A stretch of 32,797 nucleotides of DNA. It comes from Candidatus Thorarchaeota archaeon. Lineage in GTDB: Archaea; Asgardarchaeota; Thorarchaeia; Thorarchaeales; Thorarchaeaceae. The notes below the pieces were generated by a model, which was not told where the DNA came from, made no database searches, and saw only the letters and a program-made list of their open reading frames with translations. The position numbers and the translations under genes were made by a program. The DNA lies in assembly GCA_029210805.1 (NCBI GenBank), contig JARGGA010000005.1, forward strand, positions 1 to 32,797, in the 5' to 3' direction. Positions 1-22,442 of this stretch are shown piece after piece; the first letter of the stretch is position 1; every line of letters begins with the position of its first letter.

Positions 1-1313
1 TCTGGGAGCACTTCACTCTGGTGTCCAAGATTGTGCAACTTACAATGAACGGTAACGACTGGCACAGAATCCTCCTTTCAGACCTCCATCATCAAGTGTC
101 TCTGAAACAAGTTGTTTTCTCAGGAGATAAGATGCTTGATGCAATATCCTCAACTCTGGTTGTTGCTGAATTGCCTGTTGCAAAGCATTCGGGGAAGGTG
201 GACATAACTGTCTTCATTCGAAGAGAGATTGCAGAGCAAGTTTTGTGGACGCCAGTGATGGTCCTAGAGGTCAAGACTAAGACCGCTTTTGATTTCAATC
301 TGTTCGGTTTAAAGCTTAAACGGAAACGAAAGAAAACAATCACACCTGCATTTTACGCATGGAAACGTGCCATGAGTGATGATGAATGGGATAGCCTCGT
401 TGGCTCAGGTCCTGACTGGGACGCTCTCGACCAGTTTTTGGACTATGAGAATGCAATACTCACCGAGTATGGACAGGTGGCCGCTCACGACCCAACTCCT
501 CCTACATCTCTCTGGAAGGGAGTCATTGTTCTGGATACAGACCAGAGTCCAATTGAGGTCTATCCAGCTTTTCAATACCTCCTTGAAGACCTAATGACAG
601 GGTTCGTTCAACAACTTGTTTTGCAGGATAACGCTCTCGCGGTTAAACCAGAACCGATAGATACTATATATGATGCTCCAAGAGTTGCGTTACTTGCTAC
701 ACCCTCTAGCGGTCCGACTGCTCTCCTTGATGAGATGGTCAATCCAGATAAATTACCAATGGAAGACCCTTTCAGTGACAGAGAAACAGATGAAAGGACT
801 CTTTCACTCTACGTTTCCATCCCGTCTCCAACTTCCTCAGGAGTGACTACAACGAAACTCTCACGAAACTGGCATCTCCTCCATCATATCCAAGAGAGCA
901 TTGAGGCTTCATCACCAACCATAAAGGAGATTGTTTGGTTAGATCTAATGGGGGACTACAAATCTGATAACCTCGTCAGAAAGAGATTCGGGCTCGATTC
1001 TCTGTTGCATGAGAAAAGAATTCCTAAGAAGCAGCATCATCAACTCACTGCCACTCTTCGATCCATCAAATTCCATGACCTAAGCATCAATATCGGTGAA
1101 CTCCTTACAGAGGGAGAAGAAGCGTTTGATAAACTATCTAGGCACATTACCGCCGCCCTTTCAGAAGCACAGAATTCGGAACGGATTATACTTCTTGATG
1201 GGAGGGCAGACGTTCGAAGATGTTTCCGGGTCATCAACAAGATTTGCTCCGCTCCCTTGAACAACGATTGCTTGACACCCTTCCGCGGTCGAAGACCAAT
1301 ATTATCTGGATAG
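1..1313 (+). pseudogene. 5' part (truncated by window start) of giant RecB-like PD-(D/E)XK protein, copy 1; reading frame breaks near 1212-1220
   Basis: Frame is open to the window edge (WEHFTL upstream of the called start). Motif AELPVAKHSGKVDI...VMVLEVKTK matches SEVPLDTDSGRGKVDI...ALACEIKTR of the 1636-aa ORF. After about 1215 the homology continues in another frame. Confidence 0.7.
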
Positions 1314-3580
1314 ACAATGGCACTCATCACACACGGATGAATATTCACTACCAGCGGAAGTGCATTGCCCCTCTCAGGTATGACTCTCCACGCAGAACAC
1401 ATCTGGATGAGAGTATCTACAATATCCCAACAACTCCTTGGGGCTTTGGGTGGATGGCTCCTCAGCAAGAGGATATTCGAATCATTGTACAAGACACTCC
1501 AACTGGGGCAAACCCTTGGAGTACAATAATACACGTTCCCCACCTTGTGGGGTTTGCAGAGAAGTTCAGAGGACTTGCCAAGCGGGATGGAAACGTTGCT
1601 CCTGAGGAGGTGTTTCATCATGTCACTAATGTTCATCCTATGCATGGGAGAGGAGTGACACTTTCCAGCATTCAAGCATCTGTTGGTGATTTATCAAAGG
1701 TACAGTTTCCCAAAATTCTTGATGATGCATTGACCCTTGTACCCAGTACTCTCAGACGTAGAGAGCCTGTATCTGCTAAGAAGGAGAAAGAAGAAGAGCG
1801 TCTCTCCCAGAATTTACCTTGGCAATCGACCTTTCACACGGTTGGCACTGCAGGGGGCTCAACAATGGATGAAAGAACAGGTCTCGCGTTAACGAAACCG
1901 CCACCAACCCCGCGTAGAGGAACCCCAAAATACATTGATGCTTACACATATGATTTCAAAACGCCTAAGAAGAGGATCATTACCAGACGCTGGTTCTATG
2001 AACAGACTCCAACACAAATCATTGAGAGTGATGATGAGTACTATGATTCTACTCAACCTCTAGGAATTGAGGATGTGTGGATTGGAGAGATTGACACCTT
2101 AGAAACACGTGAACGTGAGCTAAGACGGCTCCACTATGCGGCAAAGCACCTAATTGAGCAATCGTCGCTATCTAATGATCTGAAATTTTGCTGTAAGAAA
2201 ATAGAACGATACTGTGCAATCCAATTTGGATTCATGAAAGAGAACCCCTCTCTAAAAACCTCCGAGTTCTTCCTTGATGCACTTAGAAGAGTCAAAGGAA
2301 TCATCCTCGAAGACTCTAGTAGACTGGAAATCTGGAACGTTCTCCTACCACATAGAGAGAACACAGTAACTCTCTTGAATACTGAAAAAAGAGATGCACT
2401 GGAAGAGGTCATAGAGCAAATACCTGATGTTTTGCAAATCTATGGTAATAACCTATTCCTTGCAGTTCTGAGTACACTGAGCAATAGGAACCCCTCTCTA
2501 GCAGAATATCTATGGACTCCCATATCTGAGTGGATATTCTACCAGCTGGGTATAAGGATACAATATGATACAACAAAGTCGGTCTATAGCTTTCAAGCAA
2601 TTCTCTCCAATCACAGGTCACGCACTAAGACACTATCGCAGACCGATCTCCCCAAGAGAGCGGCAGGTGAAGAGGAGATTGGTGCTATATTCTGGAAAGA
2701 GTCTGAGACTGGTTTCGATGCTATGCTACTTATCCCTCATGATGGTAGATATCTAACAGGGATTATTGAAAGGCTCAGAGAAAGATGGATTCCCCCGAAA
2801 TGGTATGCGTGTAAAACTACTGCTCAACACCTGAAAGAATTTGCAGAAGAATCGTTGGCATCCACTGATAAAACTCCGATTGTAATATCAATCGTCCAAA
2901 ACACTCAGGTTCTCTGGGTTCCGGTGATGGATGAATATGATGATGATTTTCGATGGGGTTCATTCACCATAGCCCATGGCAAACCAGGTACACGACGCGA
3001 TAGTATTCCATGGCTTAAACTAGAAACCACAATCTCCCTATCACCACCCAATAGTATACCAGCAATTCCCGATTCAATTGATGATACTCTTAGGAAACTG
3101 GCACGGGTCAAGCATCGAGCAGTTCCAGTAAAATTGATGGTGAGTGTTAACAAACATCGTCAGGTCTATGAAGTTAATCTGGAAGGCGAATCATTTGAAG
3201 AGCAGTTTGAATTCTCAAGGACAAGTGAACTTGTTCGGTTCCTCCGCTCGCCAATCCACCAAGGCGAAGGATATCGTTCGAAAGGACATACTCTCACTTG
3301 GGACCACAGAAATGATATTATCTATAATGAAGATTCCATTTCGTTCCTCATACCTCTTATTCACCGGAGCCGATTTTATCCAGCCGAGTATCAATACCCA
3401 AAGACATGCAAGGCCCTACTGGCTACTAAGCAAGGCACCGAGGTTTCCATAATCACAAGAATAAACGAGAGTGGATTTGGAATCCTTTTTGAGGACCTTC
3501 CACCAAATTCCTCACTAAGTCTATTGGAGGAGGCTACATTCTCCAAGTCTACACTAATGCTCTTAACAGAGTGCGAATAA
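1220..3580 (+). CDS. 3' part of giant PD-(D/E)XK protein, copy 1 (continues homology in the -1 frame)
   Basis: Long ORF. PGHQQDLLRSLEQRLLDTLPRSKTNIIWID parallels THRNQLQIILDRLLASLPDEDDTTVLWFDS, and FEFSRTSELVRFLRSPIHQGEGYRSKGHTLTWDHRNDIIY parallels VEHESVPDLLRLLRWPMIHAGPMYTDAGEYVTWNVFDDIKY of the 1636-aa protein. Confidence 0.75.
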   Translation: MFPGHQQDLLRSLEQRLLDTLPRSKTNIIWIDNGTHHTRMNIHYQRKCIAPLRYDSPRRTHLDESIYNIPTTPWGFGWMAPQQEDIRIIVQDTPTGANPWSTIIHVPHLVGFAEKFRGLAKRDGNVAPEEVFHHVTNVHPMHGRGVTLSSIQASVGDLSKVQFPKILDDALTLVPSTLRRREPVSAKKEKEEERLSQNLPWQSTFHTVGTAGGSTMDERTGLALTKPPPTPRRGTPKYIDAYTYDFKTPKKRIITRRWFYEQTPTQIIESDDEYYDSTQPLGIEDVWIGEIDTLETRERELRRLHYAAKHLIEQSSLSNDLKFCCKKIERYCAIQFGFMKENPSLKTSEFFLDALRRVKGIILEDSSRLEIWNVLLPHRENTVTLLNTEKRDALEEVIEQIPDVLQIYGNNLFLAVLSTLSNRNPSLAEYLWTPISEWIFYQLGIRIQYDTTKSVYSFQAILSNHRSRTKTLSQTDLPKRAAGEEEIGAIFWKESETGFDAMLLIPHDGRYLTGIIERLRERWIPPKWYACKTTAQHLKEFAEESLASTDKTPIVISIVQNTQVLWVPVMDEYDDDFRWGSFTIAHGKPGTRRDSIPWLKLETTISLSPPNSIPAIPDSIDDTLRKLARVKHRAVPVKLMVSVNKHRQVYEVNLEGESFEEQFEFSRTSELVRFLRSPIHQGEGYRSKGHTLTWDHRNDIIYNEDSISFLIPLIHRSRFYPAEYQYPKTCKALLATKQGTEVSIITRINESGFGILFEDLPPNSSLSLLEEATFSKSTLMLLTECE

Positions 3581-4099
3581 TTGTTTGATTATTATAACGG
3601 TATCAGGCATCCTATGATTCTGAATGTAACTGATATTCAGGATATCAGATTCCTCGGACTTTCTGAGGATTTTAGACTCGGCCAAGCATTTCAAAAATGT
3701 AGGGAGGAATCTTACTTTGAGGAAGAGATTGAATCGCAAGTTTCTTTGAAGGACGCTGGGGAAGATGCTCCTGCTGTGGTAAAACAGATGAAGGTTGATA
3801 TTTCTATGACCGAACATGGTCAAACCTTCAGTTACAAGGGGCTGGAGCTCAGCGGCAAAAGGATTGTTGTATCATTAGAGTCGAATATGGGAGATTTCGC
3901 AGAACTATATGTTGTTCATGACGTTTACAAATATCTACAAGATTCTCAATATGCAGGAGGAGTATACACCGAGCGTGTTGATACTGAAGTGAATGACAAT
4001 CTCGCACCATATGACCTTGAGGAAGAAGAGCTTAAAGCAATTAGAGAGAAGGTCAAACGGGCCCTAGGAGAAGAAGGAATCAGATTCATTGAGGAGTAG
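3581..4099 (+). CDS. hypothetical acidic protein immediately downstream of giant protein copy 1
   Basis: 172-aa ORF starting TTG right after the previous stop (alternative ATG at 3614); no recognised domain. Confidence 0.6.
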   Translation: MFDYYNGIRHPMILNVTDIQDIRFLGLSEDFRLGQAFQKCREESYFEEEIESQVSLKDAGEDAPAVVKQMKVDISMTEHGQTFSYKGLELSGKRIVVSLESNMGDFAELYVVHDVYKYLQDSQYAGGVYTERVDTEVNDNLAPYDLEEEELKAIREKVKRALGEEGIRFIEE

Positions 4100-4291
4100 C
4101 TTTTCCCCCGTGGATAGTATTGTTCACAGTACAACAGGGATTTTGAGCTGTGGGGTTACCAGACCGATTGAACTGACAGTCTAACATGCCACTTGTATAA
4201 GGGATAATATTATACATATATTCCGTACACGTCCAACATCAGAACATGGGAGATTATATCACAAGTAGAAGTATAATCTATAAGGAATTTC

Positions 4292-4310
4292 GCTCTCTGA
4301 AAAAGAGAGC
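4292..4310. repeat. perfect hairpin GCTCTCT-gaaaa-AGAGAGC upstream of pcna
   Basis: 7-bp inverted repeat with 5-nt loop in the 287-bp intergenic region. Confidence 0.5.
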
Positions 4311-4386
4311 AAGCTTCTTAGGCTCATCTACCGGAAAGCATTAATCAAGCACTTGCAGGATGAGAATGTAGTTCGGAGGATATGTA

Positions 4387-5154
4387 ATGTTTCATGCGAC
4401 CTTGGATAGTACCAAAACCTGGAAACAGATTATTGATGCACTGGCAACTTTGCTAACTGATGCTCATTTCATTATATCAGATACTGGCATAGTGTTGAAT
4501 CAGCTTGACTCTTCAAAAGCAGCAATGGTGAATCTAAAACTTCCCAAAGGTGTATTCCAAGAGTTCGTGTCGGAAGGTGAGCATGATGTCTGTCTGGGCA
4601 TAGATGATCTTGTCAAGGTAAGTAAGAGAATGGCAGGCGATGACCATTTAGAGTTCAACTTGAACACAACAGATCAGCGTTTTGAGATTAAGATGATTGG
4701 TCAGGCAGAAAGACGATTCAGTCTTCAGCTACTTACTCCACCAGAAGCAAGGAGTAAAGAACCAGACCTTAAGACGCATGACACTAAAGCTGAGATGTTT
4801 GCTGATTCGTTCAAGCAAGCTGTGAAAGACATTGGTGTTGTTTCAAATCATATCAGAATATCCTCTAATTCTAATTCAATTGCGTTTCAAGGAGAAGGAG
4901 ATACAGGCGAAGCAGAGGTATCTCTCAAGAAAGGAGACGATGAATCAGCGCTCTTTGATCTGAAGGTTATAAATGACTCTCGCGCAAGATACTCATTGAG
5001 TTACTTGGCTGAAATTGCCAAGGCAATGGCTGGAGATAGTGTAGTACTTAGTTTCAGCACTGATAGACCCATCATTGTCGAGTTTGCAATCGCAGAAAGT
5101 GGTCGTATCAGTTTCATACTAGCTCCCATTGTCGAACAGAGATGGGAGAAATAA
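4387..5154 (+). CDS. pcn: DNA polymerase sliding clamp PCNA
   Basis: 255 aa; MFHATLDSTKTWKQIIDALATLLTDAHFIISDTGIVLNQLDSSKAAMVNLKLP... and C-terminal ISFILAPIVE are PCNA-like throughout. Confidence 0.95.
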   Translation: MFHATLDSTKTWKQIIDALATLLTDAHFIISDTGIVLNQLDSSKAAMVNLKLPKGVFQEFVSEGEHDVCLGIDDLVKVSKRMAGDDHLEFNLNTTDQRFEIKMIGQAERRFSLQLLTPPEARSKEPDLKTHDTKAEMFADSFKQAVKDIGVVSNHIRISSNSNSIAFQGEGDTGEAEVSLKKGDDESALFDLKVINDSRARYSLSYLAEIAKAMAGDSVVLSFSTDRPIIVEFAIAESGRISFILAPIVEQRWEK

Positions 5155-5168
5155 TAGATATTCATTGA

Positions 5169-6569
5169 GTGCGAAGAATGGCCCCGGATAAAAAAGCGCG
5201 CACCCGAAAGTTGCTACAGCTGATGTTTCAGGAGTATTACCGAACAAATCATGATAAGATTGACATACCTGATAAAATTCAGAACCGTGAGTTTGGTCTG
5301 GAAAACTGGGATTTCTCATGGGTGTGCAAGAAACGTATAGAGACTCTAGATGATGGAACAGACGTTCAAAGAGGCTGTGGAAAAAACGGAAGGTCGTTCT
5401 CAAATCTTCACATTTGCCCTCATTGCGGTGCCCAGGGGTTACAGACAACAAGATGGTCGCGTCACATTGGTTTTCGATCGCGAGATAATCTATTGGGTGA
5501 ATTGGCTAGATCCGTGCCTCACAGTGTATATCATTCGGCTGCATTTTATAGAGTGCCGGTAGCTCGTTCAATGATAGAAAAGGAGTGGAATGGTGCTGAA
5601 CTCGTGTTTGATATCGATGCTGACCATCTGGACATACCCTGTGCAAACAAACATGACGCTTGGCAATGCGGAAATACTGAATGTAACCAGGCAGGAAAAG
5701 GAAAAGCACCAGAAAATTGTCCGAGTTGTAATGGCGTATCGTTTAGAAGTCTCAAATGGATTTGTGATGATTGTCTGAATGCGGCAAGAGAGAACACAAT
5801 AAAACTGTACGACAAGTTTCTTGTGAAACACTTCGGGATTGATCCTGAATATATTCAGTTGAATTATAGTGGCCACCGGGGATACCATATACGAGTACGA
5901 GACCCAAGTGTCTTCGATTTGAGCTCAAATGGTAGAATGGAAATTGCTCACTACTTGACAGGTATGGGACTGAATAGCACAATCTCATCAGACGGTCTTC
6001 TTAGAATTGTTCCTACTGGTGAACTAAGAAACTGGCAACTTCCTGCGATTGCCAGAAAGCTTGCAGATGCCATGATTGAGTTCATTGATTCTATTGAATT
6101 GTATAAAGGAGATGAGCCATGGCTTAAGCGAATTTCAGTTCATAAGCAAGATGCAATTGAGGGACTGAGGAAAAATCCACCTATCCTTAGTGCAAAAGTA
6201 AAAGGGGTGGGTCCAAAATACTGGCAAGAGATAGCGAATAAAGCTGCAATGTTATACAGTGTAGATATTGATCAACCTGTTACAACTGATATTCATAGGG
6301 TGATTAGATTGATTGGAAGCTTAAATGGTAAGACTGGATTTACAGTCAATGAAATTACGCGTGAGGCACTTTCCAATTTTGATCCTTTCGGTGATGCTGT
6401 TGTTTTTGACGAAGGTTCTCTGAAGGTAACAATTCCTCAGAGAAGTATTGATGTCCCAGAGTTCAGAATTGCAGATTCTACTTATGGGCCATTCAATGAT
6501 ACCGTTGTGGATCTACCTAAGGCGGCAGCAGTCTTTCTATTATGTAAGGGGATGGCAAATGTTGAGTGA
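5169..6569 (+). CDS. priS: DNA primase small subunit PriS with additional Cys clusters
   Basis: ELVFDIDADHLD catalytic motif and LNYSGHRGYHIRV motif; alternative ATG start at 5178. Confidence 0.92.
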   Translation: MRRMAPDKKARTRKLLQLMFQEYYRTNHDKIDIPDKIQNREFGLENWDFSWVCKKRIETLDDGTDVQRGCGKNGRSFSNLHICPHCGAQGLQTTRWSRHIGFRSRDNLLGELARSVPHSVYHSAAFYRVPVARSMIEKEWNGAELVFDIDADHLDIPCANKHDAWQCGNTECNQAGKGKAPENCPSCNGVSFRSLKWICDDCLNAARENTIKLYDKFLVKHFGIDPEYIQLNYSGHRGYHIRVRDPSVFDLSSNGRMEIAHYLTGMGLNSTISSDGLLRIVPTGELRNWQLPAIARKLADAMIEFIDSIELYKGDEPWLKRISVHKQDAIEGLRKNPPILSAKVKGVGPKYWQEIANKAAMLYSVDIDQPVTTDIHRVIRLIGSLNGKTGFTVNEITREALSNFDPFGDAVVFDEGSLKVTIPQRSIDVPEFRIADSTYGPFNDTVVDLPKAAAVFLLCKGMANVE

Positions 6570-7182
6570 TATTTCATATGACACGATTAGCAAAGCATGG
6601 GAAAACGAGAAGGATAGTAAAAATCTCCAAGATTTCGAAGACCTTCGCCTAAGTAAAATGGTATCCTATCTATCGTCAATTCGACAGCAATTGGCTGAAA
6701 TGCCATCGGATAACGCCATTCAGGTAGATTTGCTAACTCAAGAAGGGCTCAACATAGAGTATATGCTTCGCGACCTCCTAATGCTCAGACGCACTAAAAT
6801 AATGAACTTGGTTCTACAAAATGAAACACCTAAGGCATCAATGACTTTGGCCGAGGAAGAGTTCCACAATCGTATGCAAAGGGGAATTTCAAGTCATACT
6901 GAATTCATTGATGAAGTGATTGCAGGGTCTCCTGTACCAACAATGAAACGAACAGGTAAATCAGAGAAGCCATCTCGGCCAGAAAAAGAAGTCGAGGATG
7001 ATTCTGAAGAGATGGAATATGTGATGGTGAGATTTTTGAGAGCCGTTGAAGAATCTTTCATGGGATTGGATGAAACAGTGTACGGCCCCTTTCAGGAAGA
7101 AGATGTTGCAACGATTCCTACTGCAAACGCTAAGGTATGGCTGAGAGATGGAACAGTTGCACGAGTAGCTCCTACAAAATAA
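6559..7182 (+). CDS. GINS complex subunit, Gins51/Gins15-like
   Basis: ATG at 6559 overlaps the priS stop. Helical A-domain followed by C-terminal B-domain-like VRFLRAVEESFMGLDETVYGPFQEEDVATIPTANAKVWLRDGTVARV; adjacent to priS. Confidence 0.8.
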   Translation: MLSDISYDTISKAWENEKDSKNLQDFEDLRLSKMVSYLSSIRQQLAEMPSDNAIQVDLLTQEGLNIEYMLRDLLMLRRTKIMNLVLQNETPKASMTLAEEEFHNRMQRGISSHTEFIDEVIAGSPVPTMKRTGKSEKPSRPEKEVEDDSEEMEYVMVRFLRAVEESFMGLDETVYGPFQEEDVATIPTANAKVWLRDGTVARVAPTK

Positions 7183-7195
7183 GAGGTTGAATAGA

Positions 7196-7480
7196 ATGGA
7201 TGAGCATATTCAATCGCGTGTGAGTACCATACGAAGCTTAGTTCAAAGGGATAGCAGAAACTCCGAAGAATCGTTTGAAAAGCTCCTTGTGGCACTTGCA
7301 GGTGTTTTTCGTTTGTTGGATGGAAAACAGTCAACGTTGGTTGCTCTACAGGGTTCATCAACAGAAGTTCAGGGGTATATACTAAAACTACTTGGGCAGA
7401 TAAGACAGCAGATAAACGATAGCTATGATTGCCTGATTGAAGAATTAGATAAACTTGCAGAGCGGATGGAGAAGATTTAA
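7196..7480 (+). CDS. small helical hypothetical protein
   Basis: ORF following GINS by about 13 bp (alternative TTG at 7187); coiled-coil-like composition. Confidence 0.6.
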   Translation: MDEHIQSRVSTIRSLVQRDSRNSEESFEKLLVALAGVFRLLDGKQSTLVALQGSSTEVQGYILKLLGQIRQQINDSYDCLIEELDKLAERMEKI

Positions 7481-7509
7481 GATTCCAAGAAATAGAAAGC
7501 TCTAAGTGG

Positions 7510-7722
7510 ATGCTATCTAACCTGATTCGTATGACAGCGGAACGAGAGTGGATTCTCTACATTGCAGGAATTGTATCTGTTGCAATCGCTCTTGTTAGTA
7601 ATTTTATGTATCCCCTTAACGAAATGGGAATATTGTATATCTTAGCCTTCGATGCTACTATAATTTTTGGAGTTTTTTGCATTCTGCTACTCATTCAGAA
7701 GAGAGCTCTTGAAGACTGGTAG
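7510..7722 (+). CDS. small membrane protein, two predicted TM segments
   Basis: 70-aa ORF with hydrophobic stretches WILYIAGIVSVAIALVSNFMY and IFGVFCILLLI. Confidence 0.5.
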   Translation: MLSNLIRMTAEREWILYIAGIVSVAIALVSNFMYPLNEMGILYILAFDATIIFGVFCILLLIQKRALEDW

Positions 7723-7859
7723 CATAATGTCTGCTTCTGCATAACTTAATTTCTAAATAATTGTAAGAGTTCTCAGAAACATAGTATCTTCAAAAATATT
7801 CATAGAAACTGACTAGCACAAGAAGGAGCAAATTCGCATGACTCACCTCAAGATAGGGC

Positions 7860-10800
7860 TTATGACTCTCCGAGCTCCTCAATGACTTCTTCGAGTTCGC
7901 TTTCCAATACTTCATCCAGATTTGCGATGCGCTCTTTCATCTCTTTTACTTCTGCTTCAATCAGATTTCTAATCTCCTCAATGGAGTATACCGATATACT
8001 CTCTACAGCATCATATAGAAAGACTCCATCAGCTACCTTTTCTCCCTGTTCATCCCTTACTATCCACTTTAAACAATCGTATTCCTCATACACCCTCAAC
8101 TGCAAGGGTCCAGTTCCGTCCTCATCTTGTGGATCATCGCACGAATTAGATAGGCCGAAGGAATCAAGTGCTTCCTTGAATTGTCTGTTAGCATCTTCTT
8201 CATTAATGATATTGAAACACGAACTCCACTCATGACTAAACAAATCACTGAATCCCTCTTCGACCTTCTCTCTTGTATCGGTCTTATCAATATCAAAAGA
8301 TTCCCTTCTTATCTCTAGACTCCTTATGTCACTATCTAGACTGAGTATGACAGAATATTGTGAGTCTGTATATTCAATTGTTACTTCGCAGGGCGGACTG
8401 GTCACTCCAAATCCGTCAGCCTCGAGAATTTTAGTCAGTCTTTTCTCAGCTTCTTGTAGGTTATTGATCTCATCAAGAGTGATTCCAACGCGCTCCAGAA
8501 TAAGGGTCAGAATTCGTCCTTTCTCCTCTTTCAGGTCATTGGTAAAATCAAATTCATAGGTGGTGTAGAATGGATGAAAGGGTTTCCCTGTTGCAGTTGA
8601 GATAGCATACCATCCAACCTCTCTCTTACCACTTGTAATAGATACAACCCATTCTTCCTCCTCAGCTCGAAGATAGGACCCTGGTGGGACCGAAGAGAGA
8701 ACATGGTCAAACTCTCTAAGAAGGAGTCTGATCCATTTCTCCTCTTGAAAGACCATGCACTCAGGAGTATCTGCTTTGTGACTGAACGATACCTCAAGTT
8801 TGTAGAGTTTTCCACTCCATATGCATCTTGGTGCAAGAAGGCCATGTATCTCTCTTCCTGTCTTGTACCCATCTAGCTGTCGCTCCAATCTCTTTGGAGC
8901 GTCTGCTGGGAGTTTGATATACCAACACGCACCATGTTCGTCCTCTTTCCCAAGGGCAATCGGACAAACAGACTCATCATGCTCAATCTCTACTGTGAGT
9001 TCCTCAGCATCCTCGAAGAATTGAGAAACCCTACTAGGGAGTTCCTCTGGAGTTGCCCTGGTTGCGCTAAAGATGATATATGGTCTGAGAAAGTCAAGAT
9101 TTGAGTACTTAATATCATCAAATACATTCCATGTCACATACTCGCCTGCATCTGTGTACATTGGCCCCGCATGAATCATAGGCCACCTGAGGAGTCTTAG
9201 CAGGTCTGGAACTGACTCATGTTCAACCTCCTGAAGTATGTCACCATCTTTGTCAACAAAGGCCACCCTGCAGACATCTTCTTCTCTCTCTAGCAGCACA
9301 CTAATGGAGATTGGAGAGGTTACTGAATTTAGGTAGCGCCTCAGAGCATCTGAAACACGTTGATAGAATTCCTCTGGGAGTCTGAAGTCTAATGGAGGTT
9401 CAGTAATGGATTGGGCTTCAGTTAGTTTGATGCCTTGTAGTTGACTGACTGAGGAATATCCTTTGCGTATCACTTCAAGCAGTCCTCCAAACTCTCTGTC
9501 ATCGTTATCAGGGTCTATGAACCATACCTCAAGTCCCTGTTCGGTTTCCCTACATGCAATAATGACTTGCTTGTATCCAAGAATATCATCTAATGTCTGT
9601 TGTACGAGAATCTCTTGTTTGGTTTCAGCCCAATATTCATCTTCTTTAGAAGGTCTGTTCGAAAAACAGCCCACCAACATCCTTGAACTTTTCTTTGGAT
9701 CTTGAAGGACCGTCCACCGATGAGTGCCAGTTTCTCCCGATTGGAACTCGATGCCTAGCACCCATTCAGATTCAAGTTTTTCTTCAATGACAGAGGCGTC
9801 TGAGATCAGTTCAGGAGCTTCACTTCTCTGTCTTGGTCTAGTCTGTAGTTTCAATGGCGAACGATAGAGACGTTGTGAATTGATCCTTCCAAGTGTCATG
9901 GCAACGTAAGCCTTACCGGACCTAATGTCTGGCTGTCGAAATCGTAAGAGGGCGAGTGTACTGGGTCCTATACTTGGAGGATTATCAGTGGTTTCCACAG
10001 AAACGATAACGTCCTCTGGACTACCCTTGAACTCCTGTATCAGTTCATCATACTGCTCTTCAAGGGTCTTACTTAGTTCGCCCAGAAACTTGTTCTTAGG
10101 ATTGAGCCTAACAATATATGGGATGAGTGTGAGAGCCAGAAGTTTCATCCTCTCACGAAGGTCTTTTTCAGGAAAGGCATTCTTTTCAGTCCTCTCTCTG
10201 TATACTAGACCACTTCCCTGATTCTTGAAGCGTTTTGACCATCCCTGTAGTGATGGAATAGACTCGAATCTTATGTCTACTTTCTCACGAGTATGTGTGA
10301 CAATCAATCGAATATCATCATATATTGGAGTATCACCAATACTTGGCAATGTCCATTTCTCAGGTTCAACTGCACTCCTTGGAGGGGAAGGTAGATTCCA
10401 GACTACCTCAGTCGTGTACTCTGCTAGTGACGAGGAAGAGTAGTATGGTAGTAAAGCTCTGGTCGCATACGGTATCGATTTCTCAGCAGAGGGAACTGGT
10501 GAGTCAAACCACAGGACAGTGGTATCATCTTCATCAGGAAGACTTGCCAGTAGTCTATCCAGAATAATCTGGAGTTGGTTTCTATGGGTTTCTGGAGTGG
10601 CATTCTTGAGTACGTCAATTCCGGATACAACGATAACTAATGGCCTGTCAGGCTCTTTCTCGATATCAAAGGTTGGTTCAAGACCATCATCATATAGATG
10701 GGAGAGAATGCTATTGAGATGAGCCTTGACCTCTATCTGTTCAAAGAAGTTACGAATGTGATCATAGTGTGCCTTTACCTCTTCTTCTGGAGTGCACCTC

Positions 10801-12770
10801 CTAGGCCTTAGACGCAATCGAGCCTCTGCCAGTTTTGGTTCAACGAACTGGTCTGCAAGATCAAGCCACAGAAACCTCGCATTGGGGATATTCATCTTCA
10901 TCTGATACAGTATCTGCAGTCCATGATAGTTTCGTGCGTTGTAGGCAGCTGAGGTTCCAGCAGATGTAGGGGACTCTCCTGTGAGATAGAGGATAAACCG
11001 CCTATCAGACTCCTCGTTCTGGTGAAAGGGATTGTAAGGTGGGCTCCAGGGTGATTCAACTCTCTTGCTTTGAGATTTCCTTAGAACTCTCTGTTTGTGA
11101 ATAACAAGAACAACTTTACAATCGGAATCATTTGATGGAGTGATGATGGTTCTTTTTACATTCCCCTTGATTTTCTTGAGAAACTCATATGCCTTGATAA
11201 CAAGTCCCTCAATGATTCGTCTAATCTGATTGATGTCTGTGATTGCCTCGATCATTATCGTGGCCCTGAATACATGGGCGGTTTCTTCTCCCGTGACCTC
11301 CTGAAATCTCTGAGCCAGTGCCTCTGCATAGATTGCGACCTGTGTTCGAGCGTTCTTATAGGGAGTAGAATCGACTATCGATTTCCATTCTTTCTCTTCC
11401 AGCGACCTATCCTGAAGAGGAAACTCAGCTATAACACGTTGAGGAATTCCATCTGTTCCTCTTGATTCTGATGCCTTTTGTATAGCATCAAGATACCACT
11501 TGTGTCCCATTCGTGTCTTGATCTCACAAGCTAATGCAGGTCGATAGAGTGCCTTTTTTCCATCCGTTGTCACAACTCTCTCCAGAAGTGTGATGTCCAC
11601 CTTCCCTCTTCCTGAGTCTGTATCCAGTGGTACTTCAGAAACAATGAGATATTCAGAGGATCTTGTGTATTCATGTCCCTGAAAGATGGCATCCCTCAAA
11701 TCCCAAGGGGTTGGAAAGAGATTCTCTATCCTCCGATGCATGATTGATCCTTTTAATTGACCTCTTTTGATTGCTTGCTCTCTTATGTATTCAACATCTT
11801 TCACTGTAATACATGGCTCGATAACACCAGGCGATCTGTAGAAGCCCGTCTGTTTGAGTCGTTTTATTTCCCGCAACACTGGAGAATCTCCATACAACTG
11901 AAGGAATTCATCATATTGAACATCAGTAAAGTCTATAGAAACCTCTCCCTGATCATATTCAAGAGTGCTAGTGACGCTCCTATCCACCCTCATGGTAGGT
12001 TGATATCCAGCATCTGTGATCAGATCTTTTACTTTGCCAAGGGCTTCAATTATTCCATTCCTGAACCCAAGTCTTCCGCAGTTGTACTCTGAATAGATGT
12101 GTTCCAGATAGGGTCTTGTCAGAAGCAGTAGGAGATTACTATAACGAGAAGTTTCCCTTTCTGGCACATCATGAATTGTACAAAATGTTGCAAGATACTC
12201 ATTGTGGCTTCTTGCTGCATCTCCAAAGTCCAATGAAGGAAGGTCTGGATGGGAGAGAATCACTCTAGGACCAAAGGATGTCCCCTCATATCCTGCTACA
12301 CGGAACTTCCTCCTCTTTACACCATCTCTCCGAGTTCTTGTTCCAAATTTGATCGACTTAGGGAGTGGAAAGTCCATCTCAGAAAACTCTCTCAGGTTGG
12401 CACCACAGATATTCTGTCGTGCATTATGAGGTCCTACTGTACCATCCGAGTTCCTTTGCCTCTGAACTTCTGTAAATCCAAACTCAGCCGCTTTTTCATT
12501 CAGCATCTTGAGATTGTTATCTCTGATCTGCGGCTCAGCCTTTAGAATATAGGAGTAATCAGGGTTTCCTCGTTCTTTAGTGAGGAGATATACCTGACGG
12601 GCAATCTTCCAGATTTCATCCGAGCTTCTGTAGTGTTTCGATGTTGTCTTGTTCTTGATTGCCCTCTGTAGTTGCACTGTTGAAGAGAGACCTGTCTGCA
12701 TTGCGATAGAGATTACTCTCTCTGGATGTATGGGGAGTGGTCGTGCAGGTCGTCCTCTTCGTCTTGGCAT
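7860..12770 (-). CDS. giant (1636 aa) RecB-like PD-(D/E)XK nuclease-domain protein with AT-hook-like N-terminus and degenerate P-loop-like region, copy 2
   Basis: N-terminal MPRRRGRPARP (RGRP core); E..GKVDITLL..ACEIKTR (E378/D392/E416xK418) and following RTQVAIYAEAL (QxxxY-like); about residues 590-780 resemble a RecA-like fold without the Walker A Lys. Confidence 0.85.
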   Translation of the reverse strand: MPRRRGRPARPLPIHPERVISIAMQTGLSSTVQLQRAIKNKTTSKHYRSSDEIWKIARQVYLLTKERGNPDYSYILKAEPQIRDNNLKMLNEKAAEFGFTEVQRQRNSDGTVGPHNARQNICGANLREFSEMDFPLPKSIKFGTRTRRDGVKRRKFRVAGYEGTSFGPRVILSHPDLPSLDFGDAARSHNEYLATFCTIHDVPERETSRYSNLLLLLTRPYLEHIYSEYNCGRLGFRNGIIEALGKVKDLITDAGYQPTMRVDRSVTSTLEYDQGEVSIDFTDVQYDEFLQLYGDSPVLREIKRLKQTGFYRSPGVIEPCITVKDVEYIREQAIKRGQLKGSIMHRRIENLFPTPWDLRDAIFQGHEYTRSSEYLIVSEVPLDTDSGRGKVDITLLERVVTTDGKKALYRPALACEIKTRMGHKWYLDAIQKASESRGTDGIPQRVIAEFPLQDRSLEEKEWKSIVDSTPYKNARTQVAIYAEALAQRFQEVTGEETAHVFRATIMIEAITDINQIRRIIEGLVIKAYEFLKKIKGNVKRTIITPSNDSDCKVVLVIHKQRVLRKSQSKRVESPWSPPYNPFHQNEESDRRFILYLTGESPTSAGTSAAYNARNYHGLQILYQMKMNIPNARFLWLDLADQFVEPKLAEARLRLRPRRCTPEEEVKAHYDHIRNFFEQIEVKAHLNSILSHLYDDGLEPTFDIEKEPDRPLVIVVSGIDVLKNATPETHRNQLQIILDRLLASLPDEDDTTVLWFDSPVPSAEKSIPYATRALLPYYSSSSLAEYTTEVVWNLPSPPRSAVEPEKWTLPSIGDTPIYDDIRLIVTHTREKVDIRFESIPSLQGWSKRFKNQGSGLVYRERTEKNAFPEKDLRERMKLLALTLIPYIVRLNPKNKFLGELSKTLEEQYDELIQEFKGSPEDVIVSVETTDNPPSIGPSTLALLRFRQPDIRSGKAYVAMTLGRINSQRLYRSPLKLQTRPRQRSEAPELISDASVIEEKLESEWVLGIEFQSGETGTHRWTVLQDPKKSSRMLVGCFSNRPSKEDEYWAETKQEILVQQTLDDILGYKQVIIACRETEQGLEVWFIDPDNDDREFGGLLEVIRKGYSSVSQLQGIKLTEAQSITEPPLDFRLPEEFYQRVSDALRRYLNSVTSPISISVLLEREEDVCRVAFVDKDGDILQEVEHESVPDLLRLLRWPMIHAGPMYTDAGEYVTWNVFDDIKYSNLDFLRPYIIFSATRATPEELPSRVSQFFEDAEELTVEIEHDESVCPIALGKEDEHGACWYIKLPADAPKRLERQLDGYKTGREIHGLLAPRCIWSGKLYKLEVSFSHKADTPECMVFQEEKWIRLLLREFDHVLSSVPPGSYLRAEEEEWVVSITSGKREVGWYAISTATGKPFHPFYTTYEFDFTNDLKEEKGRILTLILERVGITLDEINNLQEAEKRLTKILEADGFGVTSPPCEVTIEYTDSQYSVILSLDSDIRSLEIRRESFDIDKTDTREKVEEGFSDLFSHEWSSCFNIINEEDANRQFKEALDSFGLSNSCDDPQDEDGTGPLQLRVYEEYDCLKWIVRDEQGEKVADGVFLYDAVESISVYSIEEIRNLIEAEVKEMKERIANLDEVLESELEEVIEELGES

Positions 12771-12911
12771 CTCATTCTTCTATATCCTTTTTTGCTATTT
12801 AACTTCAATAGGTGAGAGTATTTATATTGTATTTATTTCTTTAAAATCGTATATGAGTGTTGAAATTTAGTGTTCTAAATATTAAATAATTAGCTAATTA
12901 ATAACTCTCAT

Positions 12912-12926
12912 AACTTTATATATTCA
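12912..12926 (+). repeat. direct repeat unit 1 AACTTTATATATTCA (TATA-box-like)
   Basis: Exact 15-bp match to 13009-13023, 97 bp apart. Confidence 0.75.
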
Positions 12927-12954
12927 TTGACTGTATCAATGTACGAGGTTAAAT

Positions 12955-12978
12955 TCCTCTTCCTGAACAAGAAGAGGA
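12955..12978. repeat. hairpin TCCTCTTC-ctgaacaa-GAAGAGGA upstream of tnpB
   Basis: 8-bp perfect inverted repeat; followed by a second hairpin CTGACC...GGTCAG at 12989-13008. Confidence 0.7.
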
Positions 12979-13008
12979 GTGAACTCAACTGACCAGAAAC
13001 TGGGTCAG

Positions 13009-13023
13009 AACTTTATATATTCA
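13009..13023 (+). promoter_or_regulatory. TATA box of tnpB-like gene (second copy of 15-bp direct repeat)
   Basis: CTTTATATA centred about 25 bp before the ATG at 13038, fitting a leaderless archaeal transcript. Confidence 0.6.
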
Positions 13024-13037
13024 GAAGGCGAAATTCA

Positions 13038-14729
13038 ATGGCTCGTTCCAAAGGTGTAATAATCTCTGTCAAGGTTCCTATCAAATGGGAAGTAATGACA
13101 GAGAGGACTAGGCAGAGGCTTAGACAGACCGTTGGAAGGGACACTAGGGTGATTCGTGCATTTCTTGGAATAATAGAACAACATGAAGACGAGTTGCTAA
13201 CGGGAAAGAACAGACAAAGAATTAGCGACGGCAAGCTGGACCAGCATACCATGACCGCGCTTAGGATGAATCCGGGTTATGAACAGAGAACGAACGTTCC
13301 ACATGACTTCAAGGTCCGATTTCCCCGAATCTCACAGAATGAATTGATTGAATGTCGACAAACCGCAGTTGCACTCTATGAGAGTTATCTCAAACTAAAT
13401 GCAAAAAATGGAGTGCGTGCTTCAAGACCTACTTCGATTAATGCGACTAGAAGAATACCACGCTGGGTCTTTTCTCGAAGGTTCAGTCTGATAGAAAAGA
13501 AAACCTCTGTCACTCGATGGTGGCTTGATATCAGGGATGCTCTTGACTCTGTGAGAGAGGGAAGAATCCATCATGATAGACTGAGTATTCCTCTCAAGGT
13601 GTCTCCATTTCACCTCAACCAGATAAGACGAGGTGAAGTAAAGGCACTACAGATCTTCACTGACAGGAATCGAAAATGGTGGGTGAGTCTTGCGGTGCGA
13701 ATAGACATCGACGAACTTCAAGAGAATGGCCTTCCAGCAGCTATCCTTGGTGTTGATCTTGGAGTTGAGAAAGCTGTTTGTTCTACCCTCCTTACTCCTG
13801 AAAAAGTACGGGAAACAAGATACTTCGTACAAAAAGAAAAGGTCAAAATTATCAAGAAGTATGATTGCATTGTTGCAGACCTACAGAGAAATATGCACAC
13901 TCGACAGAATGAAGGACTACCTAATGATAGAGTTGCTGAGAAACTCCGTCGTTTACGCTCAAAGAGAGAGAATGTATCTCGGGAATATGACCGAGTCCTT
14001 GTTCGTCAACTTCTCGACTATATCTCAGAACTGTCCAAGAAATACACACTCTATGTAGCCATTGGTCGTCTGAAGAATATTCGAGTTCGTGCAAAGCGAG
14101 GAAACTACCAAGGACGAAGGTTCAGGGGCATGATACACTCATGGGCCTTTGCAAGGATAACTGACAGTCTGAAACACGGGCTGGCTCAGCTAGGATGGAA
14201 TGTTGATGGAAAGGATGCTCGTTTTAGAGATGTCCCTGAGGCTTGGACCTCCATCATGTGCTGGAAGTGTGGAAGCAAGGGTACGAGACCCAAGCAGAAC
14301 TACTTCCACTGTCCATCCTGCGGTCATAAGACCAATGCTGATAGGAACGGTAGTATTAACATCGCTGCACGACTCCTTACGCTCACAAAGTCACTGCACT
14401 CTGTGAGAGGACTAGGCAAGTGGGATAGTGCGATTGTCAAGGCAAAATCACGAAGCTCACGACTGAAAGCCCAACCGAGAATCTCGAAGAGATTGTCAAG
14501 AGGGAAGTCCTTACTCTCCAAACAAGAACCAACATCAGGTTCTGGAGAGTCCGCGGCCGTTCACTATGTCCAGTCGGACCTTGTTAGTATCAGTGATGGT
14601 GCTGGGAAGGGTGATAATGACCCTGCTGTGGAAAAAACTGTGGAAACGCTCACTGTCGCTGGAAGTGATGAATCAGCACAAAGACAGGAGAAAGAGGCCA
14701 GGTCTGTAGGAGGGATTCCATCTCAATGA
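13038..14729 (+). CDS. tnpB: TnpB-like (IS200/IS605 OrfB family) RuvC/zinc-ribbon protein
   Basis: AILGVDLGVEKAV (RuvC-I), LYVAIGRLKNIR (RuvC-II position), CWKCGS...FHCPSCGHKTNADRNGSINIAAR (zinc ribbon and RuvC-III). Confidence 0.88.
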   Translation: MARSKGVIISVKVPIKWEVMTERTRQRLRQTVGRDTRVIRAFLGIIEQHEDELLTGKNRQRISDGKLDQHTMTALRMNPGYEQRTNVPHDFKVRFPRISQNELIECRQTAVALYESYLKLNAKNGVRASRPTSINATRRIPRWVFSRRFSLIEKKTSVTRWWLDIRDALDSVREGRIHHDRLSIPLKVSPFHLNQIRRGEVKALQIFTDRNRKWWVSLAVRIDIDELQENGLPAAILGVDLGVEKAVCSTLLTPEKVRETRYFVQKEKVKIIKKYDCIVADLQRNMHTRQNEGLPNDRVAEKLRRLRSKRENVSREYDRVLVRQLLDYISELSKKYTLYVAIGRLKNIRVRAKRGNYQGRRFRGMIHSWAFARITDSLKHGLAQLGWNVDGKDARFRDVPEAWTSIMCWKCGSKGTRPKQNYFHCPSCGHKTNADRNGSINIAARLLTLTKSLHSVRGLGKWDSAIVKAKSRSSRLKAQPRISKRLSRGKSLLSKQEPTSGSGESAAVHYVQSDLVSISDGAGKGDNDPAVEKTVETLTVAGSDESAQRQEKEARSVGGIPSQ

Positions 14730-14735
14730 TGACAG

Positions 14736-14772
14736 ACAATGCTCTTGCTCATTGTAAATTCTTCGTGAATTT
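14736..14772. repeat. two tandem hairpins just 3' of tnpB (ACAATG..CATTGT 14736-14755; AAATTC..GAATTT 14756-14772)
   Basis: Two perfect 6-bp inverted repeats starting 7 nt after the tnpB stop; candidate right-end/omega-RNA structure. Confidence 0.5.
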
Positions 14773-14939
14773 GCAAAGTGGTGACACTGGCAGGAGAAGG
14801 GCGGAACACAGAAGTTTCTTGTTGGTGTTCACTCACATCAAATGCAAGAAATAGGTTATCTGCAAACTTTTAATATAGGCTTCATTTGTGCTGTGGCATC
14901 TAGCCCCTTCGCCAGTCATCGTATTGGTGGTTATTAATC

Positions 14940-19784: not shown

Positions 19785-19849
19785 GTGGCGATATAGTTGC
19801 AAAGGCGAGTGAAGTAAGTGTCTGCGATTCCAACCCTGGTGTTCTATGA
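19781..19849 (+). CDS. 22-aa ATGA-overlapping ORF at the end of hdrA (MSGDIVAKASEVSVCDSNPGVL); possible remnant of a truncated downstream gene
   Basis: ATGA start/stop overlap typical of translational coupling; very short. Confidence 0.3.
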   Translation: MSGDIVAKASEVSVCDSNPGVL

Positions 19850-19970
19850 TGTTAAACGGATTGGAAGAACTGATAATAGAAACACTGCTAGAACACGTAA
19901 AACAGGTCTTTGGTTGCCCCTTGCTTTGGCACATTCAAGGTGATAGTCCGATAGAACATAAAAAAGGACA

Positions 19971-20059
19971 TGGCCTCGGGGGCGAGATTTGAGCTCGCGT
20001 GAGGTACTGCCTCAACTTGGTCATAAGATGAGTGCCATAGACCTCTGGGCGTCCAGTCT
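19971..20059 (-). pseudogene. class-II (Ser/Leu-type) tRNA-like sequence, probably a decayed tRNA
   Basis: Minus strand: T-arm GCGAG-CTCAAAT-CTCGC, 3' acceptor CCCCGAG, discriminator G, CCA, variable arm TGAGG-CAGTA-CCTCA (20000-20014), D-arm GCC..A..GG..A..GGC. The 5' acceptor strand (AGACTGG) and anticodon stem (CTCAT/CCAAG) do not pair. Confidence 0.55.
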
Positions 20060-20070
20060 TCGCTTTTTTC

Positions 20071-21642
20071 TCAGTCCGAATCGTCCTTAATAATCTGTTT
20101 CAGGATTTTTGAAATTGCATCCCATTCTAGATTTGTTTTCTTCATGAGCGTGTGTACGGCCTTGTGACAAGATTGGCATAGCGCTACCCATTCATCAGGA
20201 TTCAGTGATTCTAGGTTCTCTTTGGTCCATAGAAGGCTACGATGGTGAGGTTTTCCATCCTTCTTATGGATGAGTTCCTTTTCGAAATCACATATATTAC
20301 AGCTGGTACCAAAGATGCTCTCTCGCAATTCATCAATACTTAGACCATCAAATTCCCTAGGCTCCCACCCCATCTTCCGGAGAACTCTACGAATTGGATG
20401 GTGGGTTTTGAATCCGAAATATTGTCCAATTTCATTCAAAGACATCTTCTCATCATAATATAATCTGAATACCACATCGGGGTCCAATTCTCTCTTGGGG
20501 TCCCAACCTTCTTCTTTGAAGATACGACCAATTGTTCTTGGTGAGCAATCTAATTGTTCAGAGATCTCTTCCATTGTCCACTTTTCATCAAAGAATAAAC
20601 TGTATACCTCTTCGCGGTTTATTCCCTTCCCTTTGGGGCGAGTTTCCCACCCCTCTTGTCTGAAAATGCGTCGTAGTGAATTCCCATTCTTCAATCCTAA
20701 ATGGTCTGCTACTTCTTGTAGCGTGAGTTCTTTATCAAAATATAATCTATATACTTCCTCAGAATCGATTTCCTTTTGAGGAACTGAATGGGGACGAGAA
20801 GTCCACATCTCTTCAATAAATATGCGACGAATTGGAGCTATCGAGCACCCAATAAGGTCAGCTATCTTTTGCATTGATAAATTCTCATCGAAATAGAGAT
20901 TGTACACTTCCTCTCTATCTATTTCCTGTTTTAGAGAGCGGACTTCCCAATCTTGGTTCTTGAAAGCTTGTCGTATAGAGAAACTAGATTTGAAACCAAA
21001 GTGATTAGCAATTTCATTCATTGACTTTCCTTCTTCATAATATAATCTGTGTGCATCCTGTAGTGGTACATCTTTGATATCCGAGCGGAACTGCCAACCA
21101 TTTACTTTGAACAGTCGGTTAATTGGGCTTCTAGAGATTCCCAGTTTTTTTGCAATTTCATATGATGATAGACGCTCATCAAAATATAATCTATGAATCT
21201 CTTCTGAATCCAGCTCTATTTTTGGGTGAGAACTCGGTCTTGCTTCCCAACCGTTGATTTTGAAAATGCGCCGAATTGGATTCTTTGTTCTAAAACCAAA
21301 ATGCGCAGCTATCGCTTTCATTGATTTGTTCTTGTCAAAGTATAGACTTCGTACTTCTTGAGTGTCAATCTCCTTTGCTGCTGTTCGAGTGTTCGTGGTT
21401 TCAACATCTATCTCTTGTTCAAACACCTTGTATTTTTCGAATCTCCAACCATGTTCATCAAACAATTCTTGGATTCGTTCTTTATCTGCGAACTTCTTAG
21501 CAATATCCCCCAGAAACAAAGATTCCTTATCGTAGATACTATCTCCTTTCTCCTTTTCCGAGCTTGACCACCGATACCACCTACCCACACGCAAACCGAT
21601 TCCCAAGTGGCGTAGCCCCACATTGTAGTGGGGGCAAGTCAT
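20071..21642 (-). CDS. tandem helix-turn-helix array protein with C-terminal HNH nuclease domain (523 aa)
   Basis: Seven clear ~45-51-aa repeats of type EEVYxLYFDExLSMxEIAxxxGxxxxxIRRIFKxxGWExR plus a degenerate N-terminal one; C-terminal CNIC-x14-HHR...NPDEWVALCQSCHKAVH HNH signature. Exact start uncertain. Confidence 0.8.
   Translation of the reverse strand: MTCPHYNVGLRHLGIGLRVGRWYRWSSSEKEKGDSIYDKESLFLGDIAKKFADKERIQELFDEHGWRFEKYKVFEQEIDVETTNTRTAAKEIDTQEVRSLYFDKNKSMKAIAAHFGFRTKNPIRRIFKINGWEARPSSHPKIELDSEEIHRLYFDERLSSYEIAKKLGISRSPINRLFKVNGWQFRSDIKDVPLQDAHRLYYEEGKSMNEIANHFGFKSSFSIRQAFKNQDWEVRSLKQEIDREEVYNLYFDENLSMQKIADLIGCSIAPIRRIFIEEMWTSRPHSVPQKEIDSEEVYRLYFDKELTLQEVADHLGLKNGNSLRRIFRQEGWETRPKGKGINREEVYSLFFDEKWTMEEISEQLDCSPRTIGRIFKEEGWDPKRELDPDVVFRLYYDEKMSLNEIGQYFGFKTHHPIRRVLRKMGWEPREFDGLSIDELRESIFGTSCNICDFEKELIHKKDGKPHHRSLLWTKENLESLNPDEWVALCQSCHKAVHTLMKKTNLEWDAISKILKQIIKDDSD
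21616..21633. repeat. hairpin CCCCAC-attgta-GTGGGG at 5' end of the HTH-array/HNH ORF
   Basis: 6-bp perfect inverted repeat in the region encoding the annotated N-terminus. Confidence 0.5.
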
Positions 21643-22083
21643 TTTCCCACTATAAGAATTCTTGGTTTGAAGTGGGTAGCTTTACTAATCAAATCTATTC
21701 CTTGTTTTCAACAACTCGTTACGAGAATCTTGAAATCTGAAAGAAGCGCAAGTCACAATAGCTCAATGTCCTATTCCACTCATCCACCTATTCTCTTGAA
21801 GCATGACCTGACAACAACACTGAGTATACCTCTTGAAAGGCTCATCTCATCCTGAAGTCCTGTGGGAGTCGTAGAGCATATCCTCAGTGTGGGCAGCGTC
21901 TGATGCAATCACACTCCTCTTTCTCAACTTAAACTTCTAAGATGTGCATTGACGAAAGAATAGGTGGCAGATTCGTGGGAATCGTGGTAGGAGGGGGGAG
22001 TTTGTGTAATGAGGGCATGTTACAAAACTAGCCCACGTATCCGCCAAGTATTCATGTACGGACCTTCTATTTAACATCATTCC

Positions 22084-22224
22084 TCAAGAATCTTCAAGAA
22101 CATAACCATGTCCGGTTTCTCTAGCGATTTCATTTTCTTTCAGACAATCTGCTCTTTTCGTGCTTCCCCATATGGCTCTCGAAGATTCAATAGGATAACC
22201 GTCTTCGTCATATGTATCAGCCAC
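22084..22224 (-). pseudogene. short coding-like remnant or GTG-start 46-aa ORF (MADTYDEDGYPIESSRAIWGSTKRADCLKENEIARETGHGYVLEDS)
   Basis: Protein-like composition; an in-frame stop lies shortly upstream; no ATG. Confidence 0.25.
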
Positions 22225-22442
22225 AACTATCTTGAAAAATAGATGAGCAATCTAACTACATTGCCAGAAAAGCAAAAGAAGATGCAAAGGTCTCGTCGAG
22301 GAAAAGAAAATAATCCCTTTTCCTGACAGATTATGTCATTCTCAGACAGGTTTATTATTATCTAATCGACGACTACCTCATTGTGGTCAAAGTGAAGAGT
22401 GCACATGTCCCAATCTCATTGATGATGAAAGGAGGCAGCTAA

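What the first reader, a model, noticed from the sequence alone, without database searches (positions are those of the whole stretch)
1..12770. Two divergent paralogues of a giant RecB-like nuclease protein bracket the pcna-priS-GINS operon
The + strand copy (1-3580) and - strand copy (7860-12770) share several collinear blocks: PD-(D/E)XK core, P-loop-like block and a C-terminal module. They enclose PCNA, primase and GINS. Both conserve D..ExK (GKVDI...EVK/EIK); copy 2 also has a QxxxY-like motif, as in RecB/Cas4/Dna2-type nucleases. A replication-linked processing nuclease, or a defence or selfish system parked at the replisome locus, are both possible.
Basis: partly seen in the sequence, partly recalled or inferred. 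Interest (0 to 1): 0.72.

Follow-up and report, generated by a model that had tools for sequence, protein, structure and literature searches.

The report
TnpB transposon carrying giant RecB-like nuclease
The two giant nuclease genes are parts of jumping DNA elements, in which a very large RecB-like nuclease always sits head-to-head with an RNA-guided TnpB nuclease; the replication genes between them are simply where the elements landed.

Summary
Copy 2 (7860-12770, -) is half of a ~7.1-kb mobile element (about 7735-14858). The other half is a divergent TnpB (RNA-guided nuclease) gene at 13038-14729 (+). In 30 of 30 intact, sufficiently flanked loci the giant is head-to-head with a TnpB-like gene, and the pairing recurs in a second archaeal family.

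Relatives show empty sites: in 19 of 20, pcna-priS-GINS-hdr is uninterrupted. Copy 1 is a broken paralogue (extent to 4099) with a frameshift, an in-frame stop, and another element's right end at its left edge.

The giant has an invariant RecB/Cas4-type motif set, a RecA-like fold without the Walker lysine, and an unassigned N-terminal domain. A covarying RNA covers the 3' end of TnpB and the right end, like an omega/reRNA. The window's TnpB has the relocated 'Ealt' glutamate known from Fanzors. Some elements with canonical TnpB carry an IS607 TnpA; the window's type never does.

Identity as a TnpB-type mobile element is strong. The giant's role is inferred: processing TnpB-made breaks, or being the missing transposase.

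The parts
7735..14858 (.). T-type mobile element, about 7.1 kb (ends estimated to within a few bases)
   Evidence: Operon contiguous without it in 19 of 20 relatives; flanks align to the empty site in G001 up to 7722 and from 14860; conserved right end.
7860..12770 (-). Giant 1636-aa protein
   Evidence: ORF; family of 30+ intact homologues; no Pfam or NCBIfam family above cut-off.
11991..12770 (-). N-terminal helical domain (residues 1-260), unassigned; invariant E79, R83, R104, N116, G123, R127, Y161, H174, D181, D184, R187
   Evidence: Alignment A1; model; not Cas1 by profile comparison.
11151..11819 (-). RecB/Cas4-type PD-(D/E)XK nuclease domain (residues 318-540): G341xxxH345, E379, G389xxD392, E416xK418, Q477xxxY481
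10191..11048 (-). RecA/Rad51/DnaB-like domain (residues 575-860), no conserved Walker A lysine
   Evidence: Foldseek hits from the 1-900 model, best T7 gp4 E 8e-4; placement of the domain inferred from secondary structure; alignment A6.
12771..13037 (.). Intergenic region between the divergent giant and TnpB genes
   Evidence: Head-to-head spacing 73-362 bp in 28 of 30 loci.
13038..14729 (+). TnpB-like RNA-guided nuclease, 563 aa, Ealt type: D240, E401, D435 invariant; canonical RuvC-II Glu replaced by G343
   Evidence: guided_TnpB E 2.1e-23, Cas12f2 E 2.6e-18; Pfam TNB E 5.4e-12.
14640..14835 (+). Structured RNA (omega/reRNA-like scaffold) overlapping the TnpB 3' end, ending TTCACTCA
   Evidence: 97% of cells paired, 17 pairs with double changes; shuffles average 8.4, slid controls at most 6.
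14836..14858 (+). Right-end terminus: variable 5-10 nt then GAAATAGGTTA
   Evidence: Motif shared by T-type elements.
7730..7734 (.). Possible target duplication, left copy (TCTGC; partner 14859-14863); weak
   Evidence: Direct inspection; longer repeats at other T-type elements.
54..4099 (+). Copy 1: broken giant gene (frame change ~1195-1225; TAA 3578-3580; homologous tail 3581-4099)
1..53 (+). Right end of an IS607-type (B-type) element or its miniature derivative, inserted in copy 1
   Evidence: Same terminal sequence followed by unrelated flanks at 17 other places in the genome.

Best explanation
What it is: a TnpB-type mobile element whose defining extra part is a giant RecB-like nuclease gene, head-to-head with tnpB, with a structured guide-RNA-like right end. 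B-type elements (canonical TnpB, sometimes with an IS607 serine TnpA) move as IS607 does, at GG-containing targets. The window's T-type elements (Ealt TnpB, no TnpA) leave imperfect direct repeats of about 9-14 bp. How it most likely works: the RNA from the tnpB 3' end/right end guides TnpB to cut a target, probably the empty or homologous site. The giant binds the broken DNA and its RecB-type nuclease trims the ends, so that repair copies the element in or keeps it. Shown: discrete mobile element, obligate pairing, conserved RNA structure, invariant catalytic motifs. Inferred: RNA-guided cutting, end processing, and the order of steps. Confidence in the identity alone is about 0.9; the score below is for identity plus mechanism.
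For: Pairing in 30 of 30 intact loci with enough upstream sequence, across T- and B-type, and in family f16. Empty sites: L055 in 4 congeners; L057 in 3 and L081 in 4; L064 in 6 and L085 in 9; window operon. High-copy ends in the own genome: 41 right ends vs control 1, 54 left ends vs control 0; 212-bp miniature copies. RNA covariation. Nuclease motifs invariant. TnpB identity, D240/E401/D435 in 24 of 24. IS607 TnpA in some B-type elements. The giant is kept with TnpB whether or not TnpA is present, so it more likely serves TnpB than TnpA (inference).
Against: No biochemical or expression data. The guide segment and its target were not identified: in T-type elements 20-odd nt of the element, not flank, follow the RNA scaffold. 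A RecB-like domain could instead cut as transposase or act in defence. Distant membership of the nuclease domain rests on motifs and a predicted fold: no profile hit to PDB sequences or consistent PHROG family.
Confidence: 0.55

Rival explanations
1. The giant protein is itself the transposase of T-type elements: its nuclease makes the cuts at ends and target, replacing TnpA.
For: No IS607 TnpA in any T-type locus; Y1 transposase (PF01797) in only 3 of 47 family genomes and absent from genus g4, where T- and B-type insertions are recent. T-type leaves ~9-14-bp direct repeats, unlike IS607.
Against: The giant is equally present in B-type elements that carry their own TnpA. T-type left ends are not obviously conserved. 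RecB-type nucleases are not known transposases. An unknown trans-acting enzyme is not excluded.
Confidence: 0.25
2. The giant and TnpB form a defence or competition module carried as cargo, cutting rival mobile elements or viruses.
For: Large, fast-diverging C-terminus, many paralogues, nested insertions of one element type into another.
Against: No PADLOC match. Pairing and RNA are built into the element end, so a role in the element's own life cycle is simpler.
Confidence: 0.15
3. Replication-linked nuclease, the reader's first option: the genes sit at pcna-priS-GINS because they work at the replication fork.
For: Position in this one contig; a member lies ~11 kb from pcna in G045.
Against: No member in the 20 pcna loci fetched; dispersed sites with empty alleles; absent from relatives with intact replication genes.
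Confidence: 0.03

Closest known systems
IS607-family transposons (serine TnpA + TnpB)
   Same: B-type elements: IS607 TnpA in L048, L056, L076 and a homologue in L141 (L048, L056, L076 tested: NF033518 E 5e-46 to 9e-54, above cut-off); TnpB; insertion at GG-containing targets, as described for IS607 (PMC6188088).
   Different: Extra 1.4-1.95-kaa nuclease gene. L055 has no TnpA. T-type elements lack TnpA and show direct repeats, which IS607 does not make.
IS200/IS605 elements and OMEGA TnpB with omega/reRNA
   Same: TnpB with structured RNA overlapping the gene's 3' end and the element's right end.
   Different: No Y1 TnpA in 44 of 47 family genomes; giant partner; scaffold not directly at the element edge in T-type.
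Ealt TnpB / pro-Fanzor (PMC10711439)
   Same: RuvC glutamate six residues before the first CxxC (E401AWTSIMCWKC), canonical site lost, in 24 of 24.
   Different: RuvC-I motif is DLG, not the DPG of Fanzors; archaeal; paired with the giant.
RecB/AddB/Cas4-type PD-(D/E)XK nucleases
   Same: GxxxH, E, GxxD, E/DxK, QxxxY order; core of three strands followed by the QxxxY helix in the model.
   Different: No profile match to known families; embedded in a giant protein with a RecA-like domain.
Aloposons of Heimdallarchaeum (PMC8813620)
   Same: Archaeal mobile elements with giant genes, integration near tRNA genes.
   Different: Their giants are 3,000-6,000 aa and tandem, with four conserved upstream genes; that paper's text never mentions TnpB; homology not testable here.

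Membership tests
IS607 family (B-type relatives) | Serine recombinase TnpA in the element | tested here: met
   Met for some B-type elements; not for L055.
IS607 family (window's T-type element) | Serine recombinase TnpA in the element | tested here: not met
   No TnpA or remnant in the window or any T-type locus.
IS607 family (B-type relatives) | Insertion at GG without target duplication | tested here: inconclusive
   Targets AAGGGT at L055 and L057; shared GGTTGC or GGTTTTGGC at both ends is compatible with GG exchange or a repeat.
IS200/IS605 | Y1 HUH transposase, in the element or genome | tested here: not met
   No Y1 gene in the element; PF01797 in 3 of 47 family genomes; the own genome has one, at C338.
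TnpB (RNA-guided nuclease) family | RuvC D/E/D triad plus zinc-ribbon TNB domain | tested here: met
   TNB E 5.4e-12; D240/E401/D435; guided_TnpB E 2e-23 but 83 bits, below the 100-bit cut-off.
TnpB (RNA-guided nuclease) family | Associated reRNA/omega-RNA | tested here: met
   Covarying RNA at 14640-14835; expression and guide not testable.
RecB/Cas4-type nuclease | GxxxH / GxxD / (E/D)xK / QxxxY on an alpha-beta core | tested here: met
RecB/Cas4-type nuclease | Profile similarity to a known member | tested here: not met
   No relevant hit in Pfam, NCBIfam or PDB sequences; only single-member weak PHROG hits.
RecB/Cas4-type nuclease | Nuclease activity | not testable with these tools
   Needs purified protein.
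Casposon (Cas1 integrase) | Cas1 domain | tested here: not met
   hhalign of giant N-terminal domain vs 23 archaeal Cas1: 1.1% probability; Foldseek hits weak, E 0.24-0.49.
Known anti-phage defence system | Match to a defence model | tested here: not met
   PADLOC, E up to 1: none.

The most novel reading that the evidence does not exclude
A class of archaeal mobile elements that move without any known transposase: a giant RecB-like nuclease and an RNA-guided Ealt TnpB together pick the target and insert or copy the element, i.e. natural RNA-guided insertion by a nuclease pair.
Probability: 0.2. Interest if true: 0.92.

Novelty: new variant of a known kind. Interest (0 to 1): 0.77.

Why it matters
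TnpB is the ancestor of Cas12, and known TnpB elements are small. Here TnpB has an apparently obligate giant nuclease partner, kept across two archaeal families and across two TnpB types (canonical and Fanzor-like Ealt). That makes the question of what follows an RNA-guided cut in transposon biology directly testable, and offers a possible way of spreading without a known transposase. The giant itself belongs to a family unnamed in the libraries searched. No open-access paper found links TnpB with a RecB-like nuclease.

Tried and rejected
Replication linkage: rejected by 20 pcna loci. Cas1/casposase origin of the N-terminal domain: suggested by a HxxxP..D motif and weak Foldseek hits, rejected by profile comparison. 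Giant Cas1-containing ORFs in G068 and G081 turned out to be helicase-Cas1 fusions unrelated to this family. 'Nuclease-dead' T-type TnpB: first inferred from loss of the canonical Glu, withdrawn after finding the invariant Ealt. Programmed frameshift in copy 1: unlikely given the additional in-frame stop, though assembly error at either site is not excluded. Restriction of the family to one archaeal family: revised after the profile search found three f16 genomes. Rfam: no relevant match, only a chance miRNA-model hit. C-terminal half: no confident fold match. Empty sites for the own genome's 212-bp copies: relatives too divergent.

Full report
1. The genes. The window is one whole contig of a 4.03-Mb archaeal assembly. 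Copy 2 is an intact 1636-aa ORF at 7860-12770 (-). Copy 1 is broken. Its product up to 1313 (frame 3) and from 1220 (frame 2) aligns end to end with a single homologue (L047, 1774 aa: 60% and 51% identity), with a frame change near 1195-1225; a TAA at 3578-3580 is followed in the same frame by a homologous tail to 4099. Bases 1-53 belong to another element's right end. A sequencing or assembly error at the frame change or stop cannot be excluded.

2. The family. The own genome has 16 matches on 13 contigs. Pfam, NCBIfam and PADLOC name none of it. A profile of residues 1-900 finds it in 30 genomes of the same archaeal family and in 3 genomes of one other family, among 231 genomes of the phylum. 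GxxxH, E379, GxxD, (E/D)xK and QxxxY are invariant in all 37-38 aligned rows that cover them. AlphaFold2 on residues 1-900 gave mean pLDDT 86.9 and pTM 0.86. Foldseek finds a RecA/Rad51/DnaB-like fold (best E 8e-4, probability up to 1.00), assigned here to about residues 590-850 from the order of secondary structure. That block has no conserved Walker lysine. The C-terminal half is poorly conserved, pLDDT 78.7, no confident match.

3. The partner. Clustering all neighbours in 41 loci gave two recurrent families and little else: TnpB-like proteins of ~560 aa (T) and ~720 aa (B). Of 30 giants that are intact and have at least 800 bp upstream, 30 are head-to-head with T or B, 28 of them at 73-362 bp. 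In the second family, f16, loci L277, L278, L280 and L282 show the same arrangement with T. The window's T protein matches guided_TnpB (E 2e-23, below that model's cut-off) and Cas12f2 (E 3e-18). T proteins lost the canonical RuvC-II glutamate (G343, 24 of 24) but keep E401, six residues before the first CxxC, with D240 and D435, 24 of 24. This is the Ealt arrangement described for Fanzors and their TnpB ancestors (PMC10711439). B proteins keep the canonical glutamate.

4. It is a mobile element. In 19 of 20 relatives pcna, priS, GINS and hdrC run together with no giant or TnpB between them; the exception, G023, shows no hdr genes nearby. The insert lies between 7722 and 14860. Elsewhere, flanks meet in uninterrupted congeners: L055 in four genomes at 91-93% identity, L057 in three (a fourth, G032, seems to hold a short derivative at the same site), L081 in four, L064 in six, L085 in nine. 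L077 lies in a tRNA gene with intact relatives. In the own genome the B-type right end occurs 41 times (reversed-pattern control 1) and the left end 54 times (control 0). Short 212-bp copies share both ends, and the complete 7674-bp B-type element L055 has the same ends. Six of 28 well-flanked elements lie within 500 bp of a tRNA gene, against 0.02 tRNA genes per kb over the loci.

5. The right-end RNA. Downstream of T genes a block ending TTCACTCA is conserved and then diverges. Its consensus structure forms 97% of pair cells with 17 doubly changed pairs; shuffles average 8.4, and sliding the partners gives 40-48% and at most 6. It overlaps the coding 3' end, as omega/reRNAs do. In T-type elements a further 20-odd nt, still inside the element, follow the scaffold; whether they are the guide is unknown.

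6. Movement. L048, L056 and L076 carry an IS607 TnpA and L141 a clear homologue, and B-type targets contain AAGGGT, as expected for GG-specific IS607 insertion (PMC6188088). T-type elements have no TnpA; L064, L085 and L077 show imperfect direct repeats of about 14, 12 and 9 bp, read by eye. Y1 transposase is absent from 44 of 47 family genomes. What moves T-type elements is therefore open.

7. Function. Shown: mobile element, obligate pairing, structured RNA, intact-looking active sites. Inferred: TnpB cuts under RNA guidance and the giant processes the break. The giant accompanies TnpB both with and without TnpA, which favours a role tied to TnpB. The transposase and defence readings remain open.

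8. Limits. The genome and viral collections could not be scanned. The literature library is open-access only.

Noticed in passing
window 19785-22442, gene 20071-21642 (-): A 523-aa protein of repeated HTH units with an HNH-like C-terminus sits between two Hdr-operon genes that are adjacent in the relatives; probably another insertion.
   Followed up: partly
G000, e.g. L130, L135-L138: High-copy 212-bp non-autonomous elements with IS607-type ends; at L136 the two flanks look like parts of different genes (GNAT-like and methylase-like, by eye), suggesting rearrangement or a mis-join.
   Followed up: partly
L195 (G032:C104): At the site where G016 holds the giant element L057, G032 seems to hold a short derivative with the same right end.
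   Followed up: no
L269, L270, L271 (G068, G081): 1323-1363-aa proteins in another family of the phylum that look like helicase-Cas1 fusions (Cas1 E 3e-10 to 1e-6).
   Followed up: no
L055:11964-12587, also L054, L074, L077, L078, L022, L023: A ~190-226-aa gene of unknown family sits at the giant's 3' end, where TnpA sits in other elements.
   Followed up: partly
L052:16701-17444, L081:11283-11963: A second small unknown gene lies between giant and TnpB in two T-type elements, widening the spacing to 1.1-1.2 kb.
   Followed up: no
L049, L058, L079: Elements lie beside what reads as the 3' end of a 16S rRNA gene; identified by eye.
   Followed up: no
G045:C64:151383-153011 and other genus-g6 genomes: Several genus-g6 genomes carry two pcna genes in tandem.
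   Followed up: no
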